Origin: Mycobacterium sp. 3519A
GTDB taxonomy: Bacteria; Actinomycetota; Actinomycetes; Mycobacteriales; Mycobacteriaceae
Reading direction: 5' to 3'
DNA: 64,000 nt
Assembly (NCBI RefSeq): GCF_900240945.1
Contig: NZ_OESG01000014.1
Coordinates: 1,532,015-1,596,014 of the forward strand
The notes below the pieces were generated by a model. It did not search any database and was not told the origin of the DNA. It worked only from the letters and a program-made list of their open reading frames with translations. The translations under genes were made by a program, and so were the position numbers. Positions 14,838 to 28,191 of the stretch are shown here, piece after piece; positions within the stretch are counted from its first letter, which is position 1; each line of letters starts with the position of its first letter.

Positions 14838-17590
<2,753 letters not shown>

Positions 17591-19402: not shown

Positions 19403-19990
19403 ATGGCAAGGACGCAGCAGCAGCGCCGCGCGGAAACCGTCGCCCGACTGCTCGACGCCAGCATCGACACCATCATCGACGTCGGCTACGCGCGGGCGTC
19501 GGCGGCGGTGATCGCCAAGCGTGCCAACGTGTCCGACGGTGCGCTGTTCCGCCACTTCCCGACCATGGGCGACTTCATGGCCGCCACCGCCCGCGAGGTG
19601 ATGCGACGTCAACTCGATCTCGTCACCAAGCGAGTAGCCGAAATCCCGGCTGCCGAGGCGGCGCTGGAAGCGGCGGTGCGAATCCAGTGGGAGACCACCA
19701 CCAACGCGACGAACACCGTGATGTTCGAACTGATGGTGGCCGCCCGCACGGACGGGAAGCTGAAAGCGACGTTGCAGACGGTGCTCGCCGAGTACGCCGA
19801 GAACATCTACGCGACCGCGCGCGCCTTCCCCGGCGCCGAGAAGTTCGACGAGGACACGTTCGCGACGCTGGTGGCGATCATCACCAACGCATTCAACGGC
19901 GCCGCGATCGTCAGACCGGTGCTGCCGCAACCCGACAGTGAGGAAAAGCAGATCGATCTGCTGATCGACGTGATGCGCGGGCTGGCCTAG
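19403..19990 (+). CDS. TetR-family transcriptional regulator
   Basis: 195 residues. The N-terminal helix-turn-helix is typical (ARASAAVIAKRANVSDGALFRHF, residues about 31-53), followed by an alpha-helical ligand-binding domain. TetR proteins usually repress neighbouring genes until a small molecule binds. It starts one base after the amidohydrolase stop and so is cotranscribed with it, which points to autoregulation of that pair. The stop shares CTAG (19987-19990) with the stop of the convergent DUF2304 gene. The ligand cannot be read from the sequence. Confidence 0.9.
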   Translation: MARTQQQRRAETVARLLDASIDTIIDVGYARASAAVIAKRANVSDGALFRHFPTMGDFMAATAREVMRRQLDLVTKRVAEIPAAEAALEAAVRIQWETTTNATNTVMFELMVAARTDGKLKATLQTVLAEYAENIYATARAFPGAEKFDEDTFATLVAIITNAFNGAAIVRPVLPQPDSEEKQIDLLIDVMRGLA

Positions 19991-20328
19991 CGCTCTTCGG
20001 GCACCCGCGCCGTCTGCAACGCGACCGCGCGCGCCAACCGCGCATACTTCAACTCGAGGTCTTTGAACCGCATGTAGGCCGACAGCGTGGTGAACACGAA
20101 CGCGATGATCAACACGTACTCCATCAGGTCCGCACCGCGGTCGACGCCAAGCCAATTCGCGACGATGGTGGTGTCGTCCGGACGCAGGATCGCGTAGATG
20201 CCCGCGATCACGAACAGTACGTAACCGACCTTCACCCACGCCTTGGACCGCGCGTTGCGGCGCGAACGCAGCAGGTACACCAGCAGCGACAGCACCGACA
20301 CGATCAGCAGCGCCTGGATCCAGTTCAT
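19987..20328 (-). CDS. DUF2304 membrane protein (Rv3632 type), partner of PpgS
   Basis: 113 residues from ATG 20328 (MNWIQALLIVSVLSLLVYLL), with three hydrophobic segments and a basic loop between the first two (RSRRNARSKAW), followed by a helical tail. It matches Mtb Rv3632 in length and position. Rv3632 is reported to enhance the activity of the polyprenyl-phospho-N-acetylgalactosaminyl synthase Rv3631, probably by holding it at the membrane. Its ATG overlaps the stop of the glycosyltransferase gene (ATGA), so the two are translationally coupled; it is the last gene of the long minus-strand operon. Confidence 0.85.
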   Translation of the reverse strand: MNWIQALLIVSVLSLLVYLLRSRRNARSKAWVKVGYVLFVIAGIYAILRPDDTTIVANWLGVDRGADLMEYVLIIAFVFTTLSAYMRFKDLELKYARLARAVALQTARVPEER

Positions 20329-21045
20329 CGCGACATCCTTCCGCGTAGCCAACCGTCGAAGATGATGTTGACACCGTTGAGCAGGGGCTGGCCCTTCGAC
20401 ATCGAGTATTCGGTGTAGAGAATCTCGACCGGCTCTTCGCTTACCCGCCAATGGTTTTCGTACGCCAATGCGATGAACTCGTCGGCGTGGCTCATCCCGC
20501 TCATGGTGAGGTTGAGCGCGTCGGCCACCTTCCGGTTGAACACCCGCAGACCGTTGTGTGCGTCGGTCAGGCCCAGTTTGCGGCTGCGTCTGCTCAGCGC
20601 TGCCGCCGCGCGCAGCACCACCCGCTTCAGCAGCGGGGTGTGACTGACCACGCCCGGATCGGCGAACCGGGTGCCGATCACCAGGTCGGCGTCGTCGGTG
20701 GAGAGTCTGTCGATCATCCGGATGACATCCTTGACGCGGTGCTGGCCGTCAGCGTCGAACGTGGCGAACACGGCCGCCCCTGGCTGCTGACGGGCGTACT
20801 CGACGCCGGTCTGGATGGCCGCACCCTGGCCGAGGTTGACCGGATGCCGCACCGAATGCGCGCCCGCCCGCCATGCCACGTCGCCGGTGTCGTCGCCGCT
20901 GCCGTCGTCGACGCAGACCACGTGGTCGAAAACCGAGCGAACGTCAGAGATGACGTCGCCGATAACACTCGCCTCGTTGAAGGCGGGGATGATGATCCAG
21001 ACGTCGTGGTAGCGCGTGTCGATGCAGACAAAAATACAGGTTCAC
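20325..21045 (-). CDS. ppgS: Polyprenyl-phospho-N-acetylgalactosaminyl synthase-like GT2 (Rv3631), with apparent frameshift at its start
   Basis: A family 2 glycosyltransferase: DVWIIIPAFNEASVIGD, then CVDDGSGDDT, and the metal site DADGQH. In Mtb, Rv3631 (PpgS) moves GalNAc from UDP-GalNAc to decaprenyl phosphate for galactosamine decoration of arabinogalactan. The frame has no ATG, GTG, TTG or CTG between the upstream in-frame TGA (21042-21044) and the GT2 motif; the first GTG (20921) would delete the nucleotide-binding strand. Removing one base from the A5 run at 21030-21034 would join the gene to a GTG at 21045 that overlaps the previous stop as GTGA, giving 239 residues, close to Mtb's roughly 241. 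Otherwise an ATT at 21035 would have to serve. The coordinates given assume the repaired gene. Confidence 0.82.
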
Positions 21046-22277
21046 CCAGACGACACCCGCGCAAGCGCGGCCAGGTGCACGGCGATTCCCACCAGCGGCC
21101 CGCAGAGCAGCGCGATCACCGTGCGCGTTTCCAGCCCGACCGGCAGCAGCAGCAACAGCGCCGCCGCCACCGTCGCCGACACCCACCCCAGCGAATACGC
21201 CCGGTGCAGCGCCGCCGCGACCGCAGCGGCGCCGGTCAGCGTCAGCAGCGCGATCGCCACCGCCGCCGCCGTCAGCCAGGCCAGCAGCTCGCCGTCGGCC
21301 CGGTACTGGGAGCCGAAGCCCTCCCGCAGCAGCCAGGGCCCGAACACCCCGGCCAGCAGCACGCCAAGCACCCCGAGGCCTGCCACCACCAGCGCCGGCT
21401 GCACCAGCGCCCGCAGTCGCTCGGTGCGCTGGTCGACGAAGTGCGCGATCAGATTGCCCTGCATCGCGGTCAGCGGCACCAGCAGCGGCGCCCTGGTCAG
21501 CGTGACCGCAAGGATCACGACGCCGCCCGCCGCCCCCAGCTCACCCGAGGTGGCCTTGAGGAGCACGGGGAACCCCATCACCAGGATCGCGCTGGCGCCG
21601 GCGGCGGCGATCGAATGCGACGCTCCGCGCAGGAAGGTCATGGTGCCGCCCGGCGTGAGCAGGCGGGCCGCCGCGCGCGTCGTCGGCGACGCGAGCAGCA
21701 GCGCCAGCCACGCGACCGCACCGGCGACCGTGGCCCACAGGTATCCGACCAGCCCCCAGCCGACCAGGAACGTCGCCGCGGCCACCGCCACCCGCATGCC
21801 CGCGTCGGCGACCATCAGCGAGCCGTACTCCGTCCACCTGTTCACACCGGCCAACATGCCCAGCAGCGTGGCGTGCAGGCAGAACCCCGCCAGCCCGACG
21901 CTCAGCAGCGCGACGCTGAGCCACTGCGACTCGACGAACACGTGCGCCGACCACAGCGGTGAGGTAGCGGCGATCAGTGCGGCCGCCACCACTCCGACGA
22001 TGGCCGCCACCCGCATCGGATGCGTGCGCGGGCCGGCTGCCACCTCGGTGTAGCGCGTCGAGCGCACCTCGCGGGTGGCCTCCTGCAGCAGACCGAACGC
22101 GGCGCCGGTGACCAGACCGAACGCGCCCCAGAACACCCCGAACACCGAGAAGCCGGCGGGCTCGAGATCACGCGCGGCCAGGTACAGCACCGCGTAACCG
22201 CACAGCGCCGACAGCACGGTGGCCGTCCCCACCCGCGTCACACTGGCACGCGTGATGGGGCCCGTCGCCTCCGTCAC
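21042..22277 (-). CDS. Polytopic membrane protein, Rv3630 type (flippase-like)
   Basis: 411 residues from a GTG overlapping the previous stop (GTGA). Most of the protein is membrane-embedded, with about 12 helices in a pattern like polysaccharide exporters and lipid flippases of the MOP superfamily (oligosaccharidyl-lipid or O-antigen transporters). It matches the position of Mtb Rv3630, which precedes the PpgS gene. A role in moving polyprenyl-linked GalNAc, or a polymer made by the upstream NRPS, across the membrane is an inference from topology and context; there is no diagnostic motif. Confidence 0.83.
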   Translation of the reverse strand: MTEATGPITRASVTRVGTATVLSALCGYAVLYLAARDLEPAGFSVFGVFWGAFGLVTGAAFGLLQEATREVRSTRYTEVAAGPRTHPMRVAAIVGVVAAALIAATSPLWSAHVFVESQWLSVALLSVGLAGFCLHATLLGMLAGVNRWTEYGSLMVADAGMRVAVAAATFLVGWGLVGYLWATVAGAVAWLALLLASPTTRAAARLLTPGGTMTFLRGASHSIAAAGASAILVMGFPVLLKATSGELGAAGGVVILAVTLTRAPLLVPLTAMQGNLIAHFVDQRTERLRALVQPALVVAGLGVLGVLLAGVFGPWLLREGFGSQYRADGELLAWLTAAAVAIALLTLTGAAAVAAALHRAYSLGWVSATVAAALLLLLPVGLETRTVIALLCGPLVGIAVHLAALARVSSG

Positions 22278-23620
22278 GACGGGCCTTCGAGAGCAGGCAC
22301 CGGAGTGGAATACAGCCACGCATCCCACAGCGGCCGCAGCGACTCGTGCGCGTAATTGGCGGCCAGCCCGGTGAAGTCGTCGGTGACGGCGGTGCTGTGC
22401 CGGTAGCGTGTCGTCCAATCCTGCAGCAGCGCAAAGAAACTCTCGTCACCGATGCGGTGCCGCAGCACATGCAGGGTCAGCGCGCCGCGCTTGTACACCC
22501 GGTCGTCGAACATGTCCCGAGGGCCGGGGTCGGCAAGCACCAGATCGTGCGGCGAATCGGCCAGCCGCTGGTGGTAGTGATGTGCCCACTCGTCGGCGGT
22601 GCGCCCGCCGTTATGCTCGGACCACAGCCATTCCGCGTAACAGGCAAAGCCCTCGTGCAGCCAGATGTGCCGCCACCGCTTGGCGGTGACGGAGTTGCCG
22701 AACCATTGATGGGCGAGCTCGTGGGCGATCAGTCGTTCGGCGCCGCCCTCGCCGTCGCAATGGTTGGCCCCGAAGATCGAAATGCCCTGTGCCTCAAGCG
22801 GTATCTCCAGGTCGTCGTCCGTCACGACGACGGTGTATCCGCTGGCCAGCGGATACGGGCCGAACAGCTTGACGAAGAGCTTCATCATCTTCGGCTGGTC
22901 GGCGAAGTCGTTGTCGAAGTTGTCGCGCAGGCGCTCCGGCAGCACGGCGTGCATCTGGACGCCGTTCTTGGCGATGCGGTGGCGCTCGTACGCACCGATC
23001 TGCAGCGTGATCAGATACGTCGACGTGGGCTCGGCCTGCTCGTAGGTCCACGTCGTCATGCCCGCCCGCACGCGGCGCGACAGCAGGTCGCCGTTGGCCA
23101 GCGCGTAATACGGGCTCTCCGTGCTGATTTGGATGCGGAAGCTGGCCTTGGCGCTGGGATGGTCGTCACAGGGAAACCACGACGCCGCACCGTTCGGTTG
23201 GCCCGCGACCAGCACGCCTTCGGTCAACTCCTCGAATCCGACTTCGCCCCACAGCGATCGGACCGGTCGCGGGGTACCGCCGTAGCGCACGGAGATCTTC
23301 ATCGCCGCCCCCGCAGGCAACGTGTCCTGCAATGCAATGTGCAGCTTGCCATGCGCCGAGCGGAAGTTGGCCGGGCGCTTGCCGTTCACCGACACCTTCG
23401 TCACCGACAGCGCATCGGAGAGGTCCAACGTGAAACTCTGCAGTGCTGCGAGCGTGACGGCGGTGATGGTCGCGCTCCCTGACAGCCGATTGATCGCGAC
23501 CTTGTACTCGAGTTCGAGTTCGTACCGGGACACCCGGTAGCCGAAGTTGCCGTTGGCCGGCAGATAGGGGTCGATGACCGGGGACGCCGATTTCTTCGCC
23601 GCCTTTTTGCTCCTCGTCAC
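22274..23620 (-). CDS. M1-family zinc aminopeptidase, PldII-like context
   Basis: 448 residues, GTG start overlapping the NRPS stop (GTGA). The N-terminus is Lys-rich (TRSKKAAKKSA) without a signal peptide. The M1 beta-domain is followed by the gluzincin site H300-E-L-A-H304 with the third ligand E323, an exact HExxH-x18-E. The exopeptidase GAMEN loop is replaced by LEAQGIS (about 275-281), so specificity may differ from ordinary aminopeptidase N. Overlap with a Pls-type synthetase recalls Streptomyces albulus, whose poly-epsilon-lysine-degrading enzyme PldII is an M1-type metallopeptidase. I infer a role in trimming or degrading the polymer product, or in self-protection. Confidence 0.9.
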   Translation of the reverse strand: MTRSKKAAKKSASPVIDPYLPANGNFGYRVSRYELELEYKVAINRLSGSATITAVTLAALQSFTLDLSDALSVTKVSVNGKRPANFRSAHGKLHIALQDTLPAGAAMKISVRYGGTPRPVRSLWGEVGFEELTEGVLVAGQPNGAASWFPCDDHPSAKASFRIQISTESPYYALANGDLLSRRVRAGMTTWTYEQAEPTSTYLITLQIGAYERHRIAKNGVQMHAVLPERLRDNFDNDFADQPKMMKLFVKLFGPYPLASGYTVVVTDDDLEIPLEAQGISIFGANHCDGEGGAERLIAHELAHQWFGNSVTAKRWRHIWLHEGFACYAEWLWSEHNGGRTADEWAHHYHQRLADSPHDLVLADPGPRDMFDDRVYKRGALTLHVLRHRIGDESFFALLQDWTTRYRHSTAVTDDFTGLAANYAHESLRPLWDAWLYSTPVPALEGPS

Positions 23621-26600
23621 GCGGCGCTGACTTCTGACTTCTTGGCCGACGGTGCTGAGCCGCCGCCGCGCTTCTTACGGAACATGTTCCAAGGTGCGAT
23701 CGGGTTGCCCTGCCAGCGGGTGGACGGCGGCACCTCGTCGCCGCGCATCACCAGCGATGCCGGACCGACCGTGGCGGCCGCCCCGATCCGGGCGGCGGGT
23801 AGTGCGACGCAGTGCGTGCCCAGCGTCGAACCCTGTTCCAGTACAACGGTGTCCATCCGCATGATCCGGTCATGGAACAAATGCGTCTGCACCACGCAGC
23901 CGCGATTGACAGTCGCACCCTTCTCCAGGGTGACCAGGTCCGCCTCGGGCAGCCAATACGTTTCGCACCAGACGCCTCGGCCGATCTTGGCGCCCAATGC
24001 CCGCAGCCACAGGTTCATCACCGGGGTGCCGCTTGCGGCGCGCGCGAACCACGGCGCCGCTACGGTCTCGACGAAGGTGTCTGACACTTCGTTGCGCCAC
24101 ACGAACGACGACCACAGCGGATGTTCGATGGCCCGAATACGGCCGACCACAATCCATTTCGCGATCACGGCGATGCCGCCGGCCAACGCTCCCGCGGCCA
24201 GCAGCACCACGCCGCTGGCCAGCGCAGCCCACGCCCAGCCGAACTGCACCGCAAGCCATTGCACCGTGAAGAGCACGGCGACCCCGATCGCGAACGTCAC
24301 GATCAGCGGGATCAGCCGGCACGTCTCCACCAGCGCACGCAGAATCTTCAGCCGCAGCGACGGATGGAAGGTGCGCAGCGCATCGGCGGCGGTGGTCTTG
24401 CGGCGCAACCGAACCGGAGGGCTGCCCAACCACGACGAGCCGGCCTTGGCCTTGTGCGGAGCCGCCGACAGCACCGCGACCAACCCGTCGTCGGGGACGC
24501 GCCGGCCTGGCTGGGTGATGCCGGAGTTGCCGAGGAACGCCCGTTTGCCGATCGTCGCCTTGGCGACGTGGATCCAGCCGCCGCCCAGTTCATAGGACGC
24601 GACCATCGTGTCGTCGGCCAGGAACGCGCCGTCCTCGACGACGGTGAATTTGGGCACCAGCAATGCGGTCGAAATCTCGGTTCCGCGGCCGACTTTCGCT
24701 CCGAGCAGCCGCAGCCATGCCGGTGTCAGCAGGCTCGCATAGATCGGGAAGAGGTAGTTGCGCGCGGCGTCCATCAGTCGCTCGGTCGCCCACAACTGCC
24801 AGCCGACACGGCTACGCACCGGGTGGTACCCCTCAGGCATCCACATCGACAGCACCCGCACCCCGACCACCGTCAATGCGGCATAGGTGGCCACCGCGGC
24901 CAGGGTGGCCACCGGTGTCCACAGCGCCGCGGGCGTGATCGCGGCGGTCAGTGAGGTGGCATCCCGCACCGCCCAACCGATCACGGCCAGCCCCACCGCC
25001 AGCGCCGCCAGCGGCAGCGCGCCCAACAGGATCGACGTCAGCCCGTAGACGGCCACCCACAACGGGGCGCGCGGCGGCCGATGGTCCGGCCACGGATGTT
25101 TGGCCTTACCGGACTTCACCGCCGGGGAGCCCTTCCAGTACTGCCCGTTCTTGACCTTGCCGATTACACCGGAACCCGGCGCGACGTCGGCGTTCTTGCC
25201 GACGACGGCACCGGGCAGCAGCGTGGTGCGCGCGCCGATGGTGGCGTCGTTGCCGATCGTGATCGGCCCGACGTGGAAGTGGTCGCCGTCGATCCAGTGC
25301 CCGGACAGGTCGACCTCGGGTTCTATCGAGGCGCGGTGCCCGAGTCTCAGCATGCCGGTGACCGGAGGCGCGGAATGCAGGTCGACACCCTTGCCGACCT
25401 TGTTGCCGAGCATGCGGGCGTAGTACACCAACCACGGTGCGCCTGCGAGGTTTTCAGCGCCGCTGGCGTCCGCCAACCGCTCCGCCAGCCAGACCCGCAG
25501 ATGCAGATGACCACCGCGCCGGTAGGTGCCGGGTTGCAGACCGCCGAGCAGCATGCGCGCGCCCAACGCCGCGATCGACATCCGGCCCAGCGGTGTGATG
25601 AAGATCAGGAAACCGGCGGCGACCACCCACCAGTTCACCGGCCGCAGCCACGGCAGTGGATGTAGTTGCGCGACAACGTTGTTCAGCAGCGCCAGCCAGA
25701 CCACCCACTGCAGCCCGGTGAGCGTGGCCAGCGGCAGCGACAGCAGCACCTGCGCGGCCTGGGTCAACCGCGGCGTCGGTTTCACAGTCCGCGTCTCGAT
25801 CGCGGGCGGCGGGTCCAGCTCGTCGAGATAGCCGGCAAGTGACCCGAGCCGGGGATGGTCGTACAGATCGGCCACGGTCACCTGTGGATAGCGCTGCCGC
25901 ATGGCCGCCACCAACTGCGCGGCGGACAGCGAACCGCCGCCGAGCGCATGGAAGTCTGCCTCGGGCCCGTCGATCGGGGCGGCGAGGACCTCCCGCCACA
26001 GGCCTGCCAGCCAGCCCATGGTGCCGCCGAGTTCGGGCTCCTGCTGGTCGGTTCCGCCAGGCGGCGGCCACGGCAGCGCGTTCCTGTCCACCTTGCCCGA
26101 CGTCCGGGTGGGCAACTCGTCGACGAGCACCAGCCTGGGGACCAGCGCGGCGGGCAACGTCTCGGCCAGTGTGGCGCGCGCCTTGCCGACGTCGAACGCC
26201 GGGTCGGCGCTCGCGACGTAACCGACCAACAGCGGTGTGCCGCTGGCGGTTCGTCGCACCGCGGCCGCGCCGCCACTGACCCCCGGCAGGTTCACCAGCG
26301 CCGCGTCGACTTCACCCAGTTCGATCCGGCGCCCGCCGACCTTGACCTGATCGTCGGCCCTGCCGACGAAGTACAAGCCGTCGGCTTCCAGCCGCACCAG
26401 ATCGCCGGTGCGATACGCACGAGCCCAGCCCAGCGTGGGCATCGGCGCATATTTCTCGGCGTCTTTGTCCGGGTCGAGGTAGCGGGCCAGCCCGACGCCA
26501 CCGATGACGAGTTCGCCGGTCTCACCGGTGGCGACCGGCATACCCGCGTTGTCGACGACGGCCAGATTCCAGCCCCGCAGCGGAAGTCCGATGCTCACCG

Positions 26601-27549
26601 CGCTCCTGCCGGTGAGCAGCGAGGCGCTGGCCACCACGGTCGCCTCGGTCGGGCCGTAGGTGTTCCACACCTCGCGGCCGTCGACGGCAAGGCGCTCGGC
26701 CAGATCCGGGGGGCAGGCCTCGCCGCCGAAGATCAGCAGTCGCACCGCTTCGAGTGCCTCTGCCGGCCACAGCGCCGCCAGCGTCGGCACGGTCGATACG
26801 ACGGTGATGTCGCGCGACACCAGCCACGGCCCGAGGTCCATGCCGCTGCGAACCAGCGAGCGCGGCGCGGGCACCAGACAGGCGCCGTGCCGCCAGGCCA
26901 GCCACATTTCCTCACACGAGGCGTCGAACGCCACCGAGAGGCCGGCCAGCACCCGGTCGCCCGGCCCGATTGGGTTGCCCTGCAAGAACAATTGCGCTTC
27001 CGCATCGACGAACGCCGCGGCGCTGCGGTGGGTGACGGCGACCCCCTTCGGGGTGCCGGTGGAACCGGACGTGAAGATGATCCACGCGTCGTCGCGACCG
27101 AGTGGCGCGCCCGCCCGCCATCCGCGCGACGCGCCTTGGGCGCGGATCAGGCCTTTCTCGGTGATGATGCCGACCACCCCGGCCTCGCCGAAGACCAGTT
27201 CGGCGCGCTCGTCGGGGTCGTCGGCGTCGACCGGCACGTACGCCGCCCCGGCCGCCAGTGTCGAGAGGATCGCCACGTACAGCGCGTAACTGCCCGACGG
27301 CATCCGGATGCCGATGCGGTCGCCCCTGCCGATTCCGCGTGCGGCCAGCCACGCGACGCTCTCTTCGATGTCGGAGATCAACTCGGCGTAGGTGAGCTGG
27401 ACCTCGCCGTCGTCGATCGCGGGCGCGTCGGGGTAGCGTGCCGCCGTCTCGTAGAGGATGTCGATCAAGGTGCGCGGTGCCGGCGCGTGCAAAGACAACA
27501 GGTATTGCTCCGGCACCTGCGGTCGGTGCCCGTTCCCGTCCGTCGTCAC
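23617..27549 (-). CDS. Pls/PosA-type membrane non-ribosomal peptide synthetase
   Basis: 1310 residues, GTG start. Adenylation domain, residues about 25-495: A3 FTSGSTGTPKG, A5 NTYGPTEATV, A7 YRTGDLV, A8 GRADDQVKVGGRRIELGE, A10 Lys486. A carrier domain follows with phosphopantetheine Ser540 (GGGSLSAAQL). There is no condensation or thioesterase domain; instead six membrane segments (about 598-628, 637-655, 828-861, 876-903, 1077-1100, 1106-1136) alternate with three tandem acyltransferase-like beta-helix domains (about 665-820, 905-1060, 1145-1290). This is the architecture of poly-epsilon-lysine synthetase Pls (about 1319 residues). Specificity residues D209 A210 E213 S252 I273 G275 T297 V305 V306 K486 suggest lysine or a similar basic amino acid. 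The product is inferred. Confidence 0.93.
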   Translation of the reverse strand: MTTDGNGHRPQVPEQYLLSLHAPAPRTLIDILYETAARYPDAPAIDDGEVQLTYAELISDIEESVAWLAARGIGRGDRIGIRMPSGSYALYVAILSTLAAGAAYVPVDADDPDERAELVFGEAGVVGIITEKGLIRAQGASRGWRAGAPLGRDDAWIIFTSGSTGTPKGVAVTHRSAAAFVDAEAQLFLQGNPIGPGDRVLAGLSVAFDASCEEMWLAWRHGACLVPAPRSLVRSGMDLGPWLVSRDITVVSTVPTLAALWPAEALEAVRLLIFGGEACPPDLAERLAVDGREVWNTYGPTEATVVASASLLTGRSAVSIGLPLRGWNLAVVDNAGMPVATGETGELVIGGVGLARYLDPDKDAEKYAPMPTLGWARAYRTGDLVRLEADGLYFVGRADDQVKVGGRRIELGEVDAALVNLPGVSGGAAAVRRTASGTPLLVGYVASADPAFDVGKARATLAETLPAALVPRLVLVDELPTRTSGKVDRNALPWPPPGGTDQQEPELGGTMGWLAGLWREVLAAPIDGPEADFHALGGGSLSAAQLVAAMRQRYPQVTVADLYDHPRLGSLAGYLDELDPPPAIETRTVKPTPRLTQAAQVLLSLPLATLTGLQWVVWLALLNNVVAQLHPLPWLRPVNWWVVAAGFLIFITPLGRMSIAALGARMLLGGLQPGTYRRGGHLHLRVWLAERLADASGAENLAGAPWLVYYARMLGNKVGKGVDLHSAPPVTGMLRLGHRASIEPEVDLSGHWIDGDHFHVGPITIGNDATIGARTTLLPGAVVGKNADVAPGSGVIGKVKNGQYWKGSPAVKSGKAKHPWPDHRPPRAPLWVAVYGLTSILLGALPLAALAVGLAVIGWAVRDATSLTAAITPAALWTPVATLAAVATYAALTVVGVRVLSMWMPEGYHPVRSRVGWQLWATERLMDAARNYLFPIYASLLTPAWLRLLGAKVGRGTEISTALLVPKFTVVEDGAFLADDTMVASYELGGGWIHVAKATIGKRAFLGNSGITQPGRRVPDDGLVAVLSAAPHKAKAGSSWLGSPPVRLRRKTTAADALRTFHPSLRLKILRALVETCRLIPLIVTFAIGVAVLFTVQWLAVQFGWAWAALASGVVLLAAGALAGGIAVIAKWIVVGRIRAIEHPLWSSFVWRNEVSDTFVETVAAPWFARAASGTPVMNLWLRALGAKIGRGVWCETYWLPEADLVTLEKGATVNRGCVVQTHLFHDRIMRMDTVVLEQGSTLGTHCVALPAARIGAAATVGPASLVMRGDEVPPSTRWQGNPIAPWNMFRKKRGGGSAPSAKKSEVSAA

Positions 27550-27561
27550 GAGTACAAGTTA

Positions 27562-28191
27562 CTAAGCCGCGCGCTGGCCGCGATGGTGCCGCACGCGGTG
27601 CGTGATCACAATTGCGACAACGACGACGGCTGCCGCGACCACGTACCACTTGTACCGTTCGAATGTGTCGTAGATGTCGACAATGTGCTCGCCGGCAAGG
27701 TATCCCAGCCCAGCCCACGCGCCGACCCACAGCACCGCGCCAAGGGCGTTGTAGCCGAGGAATTTCAGCCATCCCATGCCGACGATCCCCGCCAGCAGCC
27801 CGTTGATTTGGCGCAGCCCGTCGATGAACCGCGCGACGGTCACGATCTTGCCGCCGTGCCGGTCGAAGAACGCCTCGGCGCGATCCAGCCGCTGCGGGGT
27901 GAGGAAGACATAGCGGCCGAACCGCTCGGCGAGGGGCCGCCCGCCGAAGTGGCCGACGAGGAAGCCGATGTTGTCGCCGAGCACCGCTGCGAGCACGGCG
28001 ACCAGGAAGACCACCGCGATGTTCATCTGGCCCGCGCCCGCGAACACGGCGGCGGCGATCAACATGATCTCGCCGGGCACCGGGACGCCGAAGTCCTCCA
28101 GGAACAGCATCCCCGCCACGCCGAGGTAGCCGTAATGCTCCAGCAGCGGCTGGACGTCGGAGAAAACACCAGGAAGTTGGGCGTCGGCCAT
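27562..28191 (-). CDS. DedA-family membrane protein
   Basis: 209 residues, ATG start. The DedA/SNARE-associated signature is present: LFLEDFGVPVPGEIMLIAAA, a buried acidic residue, and GRFIDGLRQ-type arginines (VARFIDGLRQINGLLAG). DedA proteins are undecaprenyl-phosphate or phospholipid translocases, some working on recycling of the lipid carrier, with 4-5 membrane helices. It ends 12 bases before the NRPS start codon and is probably the first gene of the operon DedA-NRPS-M1-Rv3630-ppgS-DUF2304. A carrier-lipid flippase would fit both the polyprenyl-phosphate GalNAc genes and a surface polymer. It is divergent from the riboswitch-controlled TerC gene. Confidence 0.92.
   Translation of the reverse strand: MADAQLPGVFSDVQPLLEHYGYLGVAGMLFLEDFGVPVPGEIMLIAAAVFAGAGQMNIAVVFLVAVLAAVLGDNIGFLVGHFGGRPLAERFGRYVFLTPQRLDRAEAFFDRHGGKIVTVARFIDGLRQINGLLAGIVGMGWLKFLGYNALGAVLWVGAWAGLGYLAGEHIVDIYDTFERYKWYVVAAAVVVVAIVITHRVRHHRGQRAA

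What the first reader, a model, noticed from the sequence alone, without database searches (positions are those of the whole stretch)
19987..28191. A mycobacterial Pls-like operon joining a membrane NRPS to M1 peptidase, DedA and PpgS genes
Six minus-strand genes run as one unit: DedA, then 12 bases, a 1310-residue Pls/PosA-type synthetase, an M1 metallopeptidase, an Rv3630-type multi-spanning protein, the PpgS-type GT2 and its DUF2304 partner. Four junctions are GTGA/ATGA overlaps. In Mtb only Rv3630-Rv3631-Rv3632 are present as I recall, so DedA, NRPS and M1 look like an insertion upstream of the conserved GalNAc genes. Co-translation suggests a shared envelope function: a basic isopeptide polymer, or lipid-carrier handling for galactosamine decoration.
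Basis: partly seen in the sequence, partly recalled or inferred. Interest (0 to 1): 0.85.

Follow-up and report, generated by a model that had tools for sequence, protein, structure and literature searches.

The report
Polylysine synthetase operon in a mycobacterium
An environmental mycobacterium carries genes predicted to make and trim epsilon-poly-lysine, packed on one strand with a flippase-like protein and genes that load galactosamine for the cell wall; the gene pair looks old in this bacterial family and lost in part of it, so whether mycobacteria make this antimicrobial polymer can now be tested.

The parts
27562..28191 (-). DedA/VTT-domain membrane protein (209 aa); nearest named equivalog UptA but far under its cut-off
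   Evidence: PF09335 71 bits; NF052604 95.5 bits vs cut-off 250; beside the NRPS in 3 of 178 genus genomes and in L017 with the same 12-nt gap
23617..27549 (-). Pls-type epsilon-poly-L-lysine synthetase (1310 aa)
   Evidence: TIGR02353 756 bits; lysine pocket code DAESIGTVVK identical to 7wew
26074..27468 (-). Adenylation domain (about residues 28-492)
   Evidence: 319 of 485 aligned residues (65.8%) identical to S. albulus Pls A domain 7wew; PF00501
25825..26013 (-). Thiolation (carrier) domain, residues 513-575
   Evidence: PF00550 48.9 bits; carrier Ser kept in 81 of 81
23698..25755 (-). C-terminal polymerisation domain: three repeats of a helix pair plus beta-helix
   Evidence: TIGR02353 residues 599-1284; hydropathy peaks in pairs near 601/642, 840/879, 1083/1112; AlphaFold2 model pLDDT 80.3, pTM 0.84
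22274..23620 (-). M1-family zinc metallopeptidase (448 aa), PldII-like partner of the synthetase
   Evidence: PF01433, PF17900; HExxH plus Glu in 80 of 80; adjacent to the NRPS in 133 of 133 NRPS-bearing genus genomes
22709..22723 (-). HELAH zinc-binding motif of the M1 peptidase (residues 300-304)
21042..22277 (-). Rv3630-type polytopic protein (411 aa), MOP-superfamily fold, Wzx-like flippase candidate
20325..21035 (-). [quoted passage not shown] no in-frame ATG/GTG/TTG upstream of the conserved N-terminus)
   Evidence: NF058614 417.6 bits, cut-off 370; reading frame
19987..20328 (-). DUF2304 membrane protein, Rv3632-type partner of PpgS (113 aa)
   Evidence: PF10066 97.6 bits; 4-nt overlap with PpgS
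16646..17590 (+). NAD-dependent sugar epimerase (GalE-like), possibly the UDP-GlcNAc/GalNAc epimerase of the same island; not co-directional
   Evidence: PF01370; TIGR01179 161 bits, under its 262 cut-off; relatives of it stand near PpgS in many named loci

Best explanation
Two known kinds of module lie in one probable transcription unit. Module 1 (NRPS + M1) is a pls-pldII pair. The A domain adenylates L-lysine, the carrier Ser holds lysyl thioester, and the membrane-embedded C-terminal domain joins it to the epsilon-amine of a free lysine or growing chain, giving an epsilon-poly-L-lysine exported or kept at the envelope; the co-translated M1 peptidase trims or destroys it (self-protection, turnover). 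Module 2 (Rv3630-type protein + PpgS + DUF2304) is the arabinogalactan-galactosamine branch: PpgS with DUF2304 loads GalNAc on polyprenyl phosphate, and the Rv3630-type MOP protein flips that lipid-linked sugar. The arrangement NRPS-M1-Rv3630(-PpgS-DUF2304) is probably ancestral in the genus and is shared with several other genera; NRPS-M1 later moved away and was lost repeatedly in one clade. DedA is a rare late addition, perhaps helping recycle polyprenyl phosphate. Shown here: gene content, order, overlaps, pocket and active-site residues, co-inheritance, predicted fold of the Rv3630-type protein. Inferred: one mRNA, the polymer, its hydrolysis, the flipping step and any joint physiology (both modules would add positive charge to the envelope).
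For: Lysine pocket identical to S. albulus Pls and constant in 81 of 81 aligned proteins. Among 35 out-of-family TIGR02353 loci, 30 have this pocket, 28 of them with an M1 gene starting within about 80 nt of the synthetase stop; the 2 with other pockets have none there, and 3 lack an A domain. The same gene pair is known: pldII overlaps pls by 4 bp in S. albulus (PMC4361855, passage); [quoted passage not shown] coelicolor (PMC8117764, Results). In the genus sample NRPS and M1 go together: 133 of 133 adjacent; the one M1 without NRPS (G126) lies at a contig end. C-terminal domain as described for PosA. Rv3630-type model closest to WzxE, then MATE and MurJ. Outside the own genus the Rv3630-type gene and PpgS co-occur in 44 of the 49 genomes with either. 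NRPS and Rv3630 near in 85 of 113 genus genomes and 24 of 41 genomes of other genera. Tree.
Confidence: 0.7

Rival explanations
1. Neighbourhood only: pls-pldII and the galactosamine module are independent, and their adjacency is an ancestral accident kept by descent, without shared regulation or function. (This rival shares the two module assignments with the best explanation and denies only the link.)
For: Synthetase present in 184 of 201 family genomes but PpgS in 57 of 201; in g3, g8 and g14 and in the nested genus clade the modules lie apart. The Rv3630-type gene tracks PpgS outside the genus (44 of 49).
Against: 4-nt M1/Rv3630 overlap in 26 of 30 loci, one of them outside the genus (L070); adjacency kept in five genera; in one subclade NRPS-M1 moved but stayed 10-30 kb from PpgS, on the other side of the island (8 genomes plus G016; L042, L043).
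Confidence: 0.4
2. The Rv3630-type MOP protein serves the lysine polymer (exports it or a lipid-linked form of it) rather than, or besides, polyprenyl-P-GalNAc.
For: It overlaps M1 by 4 nt in 26 of 30 loci and stays beside NRPS-M1 in 37 of 37 PpgS-less genomes with listed positions; PpgS presence needs 9 changes on the best tree. MATE-type MOP proteins carry cationic solutes (established knowledge).
Against: Most of the family sample has the synthetase without any Rv3630-type match (184 vs 62 of 201). Genomes without the synthetase keep it beside PpgS (36 of 37 listed within 3 kb; the 37th, G105, at 3.4 kb). In the PpgS-less locus L028 a GalE over its cut-off and a 602-aa polytopic protein follow it, so another sugar substrate is possible.
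Confidence: 0.15
3. The synthetase makes a different cationic isopeptide (ornithine, diaminobutyrate, beta-lysine) or only short lysine oligomers with a non-antimicrobial role.
For: Family members use several substrates (PMC10522769, sections read); chain length cannot be read from sequence.
Against: 10 of 10 pocket residues equal the lysine enzyme and differ from the other codes printed in the sections read; the M1 partner goes with the lysine pocket outside the family (28 of 30).
Confidence: 0.12
4. Recent insertion of DedA-NRPS-M1 upstream of the galactosamine genes.
For: DedA adjacency is confined to a small clade (3 of 178).
Against: Distribution and rooted tree show NRPS-M1-Rv3630 as the older state.
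Confidence: 0.03

Closest known systems
pls-pldII operon of Streptomyces albulus (epsilon-poly-L-lysine synthetase and type II degrading enzyme)
   Same: A-T-C1C2C3 membrane NRPS with identical ten-residue pocket; peptidase gene directly downstream with a 4-nt overlap (PMC4361855 passage; PMC9223678 introduction)
   Different: Here followed on the same strand, again with a 4-nt overlap, by an Rv3630-type MOP protein, then PpgS and DUF2304; not shown to make polymer
Corynebacterium variabile pls-peptidase operon (Jiang et al. 2021, PMC8117764, Results and Discussion read)
   Same: Pls homologue with a peptidase gene in one operon; lysine-type pocket
   Different: A word search of its main text finds no 'mycobacter'; no galactosamine genes described beside it in the sections read
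PosA, delta-poly-L-ornithine synthetase of Acinetobacter baumannii (PMC10522769)
   Same: Same family and C-terminal architecture
   Different: Ornithine pocket with Met at position 2; window has Ala, the lysine-type residue
Arabinogalactan galactosamine module Rv3630-Rv3631(PpgS)-Rv3632 of M. tuberculosis and its C. glutamicum counterpart (PMC9671496, passages)
   Same: PpgS and DUF2304 partner; Rv3630-type gene upstream
   Different: Here joined to pls-pldII; the gene order of M. tuberculosis is recalled, not fetched
WzxE lipid III flippase and other MOP-superfamily transporters
   Different: 14% identity; no Pfam family reached E 0.001; substrate unknown

Membership tests
Pls (epsilon-poly-L-lysine synthetase) | Adenylation domain with lysine pocket | tested here: met
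   DAESIGTVVK, 10 of 10 equal to 7wew; 81 of 81 in the alignment
Pls (epsilon-poly-L-lysine synthetase) | One carrier domain, no condensation or thioesterase domain | tested here: met
   Pfam at E 0.001: AMP-binding, PP-binding and hexapeptide families only
Pls (epsilon-poly-L-lysine synthetase) | C-terminal domain with six TM helices in three pairs and three beta-helix domains | tested here: met
   TIGR02353 full length; hydropathy pairs; model, in which short stretches of the beta-helices fall under pLDDT 50
Pls (epsilon-poly-L-lysine synthetase) | PldII-type peptidase gene directly downstream | tested here: met
   M1 with 4-nt overlap in the window; adjacent in 133 of 133 genus genomes
Pls (epsilon-poly-L-lysine synthetase) | Makes epsilon-poly-L-lysine | not testable with these tools
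   needs enzyme assay or LC-MS
PldII-type epsilon-PL-degrading enzyme (M1) | M1 zinc site HExxH-(18)-E | tested here: met
   residues 300, 301, 304, 323, each 80 of 80
PldII-type epsilon-PL-degrading enzyme (M1) | Sequence relation to S. albulus PldII | not tested
   PldII sequence not held; nine unnamed f19 genomes of 7.3-11 Mb carry 48-52% identical M1 genes after lysine-pocket synthetases
PldII-type epsilon-PL-degrading enzyme (M1) | Cuts epsilon-poly-lysine | not testable with these tools
   needs assay
PpgS | NF058614 over curated cut-off | tested here: met
   417.6 vs 370 bits
PpgS | Translatable start | tested here: inconclusive
   no in-frame ATG/GTG/TTG ahead of the conserved N-terminus; L042 shows none near its N-terminus either
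MOP-superfamily flippase (Wzx type) | MOP fold | tested here: met
MOP-superfamily flippase (Wzx type) | Sequence family match (Pfam/NCBIfam) | tested here: inconclusive
   none at E 0.001; one source names relatives O-antigen/teichoic acid export membrane protein
MOP-superfamily flippase (Wzx type) | Moves a lipid-linked sugar | not testable with these tools
   needs mutant or transport assay
UptA (undecaprenyl phosphate transporter) | Equivalog cut-off | tested here: not met
   95.5 vs 250 bits; filed only as DedA/VTT family

The most novel reading that the evidence does not exclude
The two modules are one pathway: Pls, which elongates onto free amines, builds lysine chains on the amine of a lipid-linked galactosamine (or another lipid-carried acceptor), and the Wzx-like Rv3630-type protein flips the product, so that arabinogalactan carries oligo-epsilon-lysine; the M1 peptidase trims it. 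This would be a new class of amino-acid decoration of the mycobacterial wall. Against it: the place of deacetylation is unknown, PpgS-less genomes keep the synthetase, and genomes without the synthetase keep PpgS.
Probability: 0.06. Interest if true: 0.9.

Novelty: new variant of a known kind. Interest (0 to 1): 0.55.

Why it matters
Epsilon-poly-lysine is known from Streptomyces, a few other bacteria and some fungi, and as a food preservative. I found no paper in the library that reports its synthetase in mycobacteria (searches; searches show only the top rows of thousands, and of the 33 papers listed I read parts of five). Here it is close to a core gene of the sampled family (184 of 201 genomes), with a hydrolase that stands beside it in every synthetase-bearing genome of the genus sample (133 of 133). 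That suggests a basic envelope or defence role rather than an occasional antibiotic, and it raises the question why part of the genus has lost it. The Rv3630-type protein gives a concrete candidate for a step called unidentified in 2022 (flipping of polyprenyl-P-GalNAc, PMC9671496). Both claims can be tested in laboratory strains.

Tried and rejected
DedA as a core part: rejected, 3 of 178 (only matches at E 1e-45 or better were listed). A fourth 4-nt overlap: rejected (one search had printed only part of that list).

Functional replacement of one module by the other: in the genus sample NRPS and PpgS absences are rarely shared (92 both, 41 NRPS only, 42 PpgS only, 3 neither; Fisher p 0.0007, counts). 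A tree-aware test gave no signal (8 independent pairs on starred branches, PpgS differing in 0.6 on average), so I treat it as inheritance in clades, not as evidence.

A glycosyltransferase in PpgS-less loci: the 602-aa protein of L028 matches no Pfam, NCBIfam or PDB sequence. My idea that it is a GT-C enzyme or Rv3635-like is recall and inspection only; relatives of it also stand in PpgS-bearing loci.

Rfam found nothing at gathering scores. Promoter and terminator scans found no more than shuffles (1 vs 0.7; 3 vs 3.4), so operon limits rest on spacing alone. The VIA-align list is a second look at Foldseek's hits; families not listed there are not excluded.

Limits of counts: one search listed 150 places, fewer than its 175 matching genomes, so adjacency counts with Rv3630 use 150 genomes (28 of 178 unlisted or absent). 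One search listed only part of its matches; one search filled in the genomes that bear PpgS or Rv3630. g11 and g26 contain contigs whose lengths equal those of named Williamsia (L067) and Speluncibacter (L070) records. In one search the loci L097-L118 and L139 hold only about 1.5 kb beyond the domain match, or less at contig ends: 8 of 22 and L139 show no M1 hit (six g3, three g9, one of them cut at a contig end); they were not used in the out-of-family count. The adjacency label 'elsewhere' includes synthetases on another contig. The tree is a quick one with 46 of 157 inner branches open and long outgroup branches.
Full report
What is there. The window lies in a 7.3 Mb genome. The closest named relatives of its synthetase (85% identity and below) are Mycolicibacterium and Mycobacterium. 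Six minus-strand genes run DedA, NRPS, M1, Rv3630-type, PpgS, DUF2304. A TerC/Alx gene lies divergently upstream; a TetR gene converges on DUF2304, their ends overlapping by 4 nt. Three junctions are true 4-nt overlaps and DedA stands 12 nt before the NRPS. In 22 named relatives that junction is never a 4-nt overlap: 21 have gaps and one an 8-nt overlap.

The synthetase. TIGR02353 (Pls/PosA) matches residues 599-1284 at 756 bits. The A domain is 65.8% identical over 485 aligned residues to the S. albulus Pls A domain (PDB 7wew), and its ten pocket residues, at 209, 210, 213, 252, 273, 275, 297, 305, 306 and 486, are DAESIGTVVK in both. The positions were placed by motif against PheA numbering, which is recalled. 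All 81 proteins aligned (window plus 80 loci) keep this code and the carrier serine. According to PMC10522769 (sections read) position 2 sets chain length, Ala going with lysine, Met with ornithine, Phe with diaminopropionate or diaminobutyrate. The C-terminal 721 residues model as three repeats of a long helix pair and a beta-helix (pLDDT 80.3, pTM 0.84), as described for PosA.

The M1 partner. The 448-residue protein has the M1 N-terminal and catalytic domains. The closest solved relative is a zinc metalloprotease (6a8z, E 1.8e-43; that it is from Deinococcus is recalled), and the zinc-site residues are constant in 80 of 80. In S. albulus pldII lies next to pls with a 4-bp overlap in one operon (PMC4361855, passage) and is called the major epsilon-PL-degrading enzyme (PMC9223678, introduction). 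In C. [quoted passage not shown] coelicolor (PMC8117764, Results). Against easy optimism, C. variabile itself and C. glutamicum expressing the gene made none that was detected (same source).

Co-inheritance. In 178 own-genus genomes the synthetase is in 133 and the M1 orthologue in 134; 133 of 133 synthetase genomes have both adjacent on one strand. The extra M1 (G126) sits on a 4,899-base contig whose end cuts off the side where the synthetase would lie. In 79 of 80 named loci an M1 gene follows on the same strand (the 80th, L032, is cut at its end); 53 overlap by 4 nt, 16 by one base, and in ten the gap is 0 nt to 2.1 kb. The pairing is not strict across the whole family: six g3 genomes and two g9 genomes show no M1 hit in the roughly 1.4 kb held downstream. 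Outside the family, 35 TIGR02353 loci were examined (15 returned and 20 fetched): 30 have the lysine pocket and 28 of those an M1 gene starting within about 80 nt of the synthetase stop; two have other pockets (DFECLSAVTK, no M1; DFEYIGTVTK, a 38% M1 some 900 nt away); three lack an A domain.

Distribution. In 201 genomes spread over the family the synthetase is in 184 (28 of 31 genera), PpgS in 57 (8 genera), the Rv3630-type gene in 62 (8 genera). Class-wide it is in 59 of 246 genomes, 16 of the 59 from the own family. So the synthetase is close to a family core trait.

Linkage. Genus sample: of 113 genomes with the synthetase and a listed Rv3630 position, 85 have both within 10 kb on one strand; of 92 with synthetase and PpgS, 61 are near, 9 are 10-30 kb apart, 11 further, 11 on other contigs. 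All 37 PpgS-less genomes with listed positions keep the Rv3630-type gene beside the synthetase. Genomes with PpgS and a listed Rv3630 position have them within 3 kb, except G105 (3.4 kb). Outside the genus: synthetase and Rv3630 near in 24 of 41 genomes with both, in g4, g9, g11 and g26; apart in g3, g8, g14 and four g9 genomes (17 of 41: 7 far, 10 on other contigs). Named examples of the order are Williamsia L067, Speluncibacter L070, Dietzia L092 and L095. Rv3630-type and PpgS co-occur in 44 of 49 genomes having either.

History. A tree of 160 Rv3630-type proteins (150 genus, 10 other genera as outgroup: six with the synthetase next to Rv3630, two elsewhere, two absent; quick method) puts 'synthetase next to Rv3630' on all basal branches of the genus. 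All but two of the genus rows with the synthetase elsewhere or absent (36 absent, 27 elsewhere) fall in one nested clade of 63 rows (support 94, not starred; its 55-row part 99, starred). The two exceptions, G126 and G008, lie on short contigs. The absent label needs at least 8 changes on starred branches and 14 on the best tree, outgroup rows included; PpgS presence needs 9. The direction (loss, not gain) is read by inspection from the root. DedA is the exception: it stands beside the synthetase only in G000, G066 and G163, which form one starred clade, and in L017.

How it most likely works. Lysine is activated, tethered and polymerised at the membrane; the M1 enzyme removes or shortens the chains; separately PpgS and DUF2304 load GalNAc on polyprenyl phosphate, the MOP protein flips it, and a distant enzyme transfers galactosamine to arabinogalactan. 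Both products are cationic (for galactosamine see PMC7502851, passage), which would give a common physiological theme, but I have no test of a joint role and hold it at about one in three.

Is it new? The synthetase-peptidase pair is a known kind. New, as far as the searches go, are its near-core standing in the mycobacterial family and its coupling to the galactosamine module. The library holds only open-licence papers; I did not see the supplementary tables of PMC10522769 or PMC8117764, which may list mycobacterial homologues, nor read two papers that hold both 'poly-L-lysine synthetase' and 'mycobacteri' (PMC11350112, PMC10157215). Gene order in M. tuberculosis and its lack of the synthetase are recalled, not tested.

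Noticed in passing
window 20921-21042: The PpgS frame has no ATG, GTG or TTG between the end of the Rv3630-type gene and its conserved N-terminus; an in-frame ATT stands there. L042 (Mycolicibacter engbaekii) shows no common start near its N-terminus either.
   Followed up: partly
window 19987-19990: The ends of DUF2304 (minus) and a TetR gene (plus) overlap by 4 nt, convergent.
   Followed up: no
L019, L023, L024, L028, L030, L056, L087, downstream of the Rv3630-type gene: PpgS and DUF2304 are missing; a plus-strand GalE-like gene (over the GalE cut-off in L028, the one tested) and a relative of a 602-aa polytopic protein without any family match follow instead; in L019 and L028 a carboxymuconolactone-decarboxylase gene comes next.
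   Followed up: partly
L119, L129, L130: Out-of-family TIGR02353 proteins that lack an adenylation domain (open frames of 1106, 880 and 946 residues), all in genomes of group f19, where other genomes carry a lysine-type Pls.
   Followed up: no
L167, L168: Synthetases with unusual pockets DFECLSAVTK and DFEYIGTVTK in group f17, without a directly adjacent M1 gene.
   Followed up: no
G000 contig C12, about 841820-858538: The window's genome holds a 6121-residue open frame with several adenylation-domain matches, a separate large NRPS.
   Followed up: no
L099, L103, L104, L106, L112, L118: In g3 genomes (2-3 Mb) the lysine-pocket synthetase shows no M1 gene in the roughly 1.4 kb held downstream.
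   Followed up: partly
genus sample: Synthetase and PpgS are almost never both absent (3 of 178), though each is absent in about a quarter; a tree-aware test gave no signal.
   Followed up: yes
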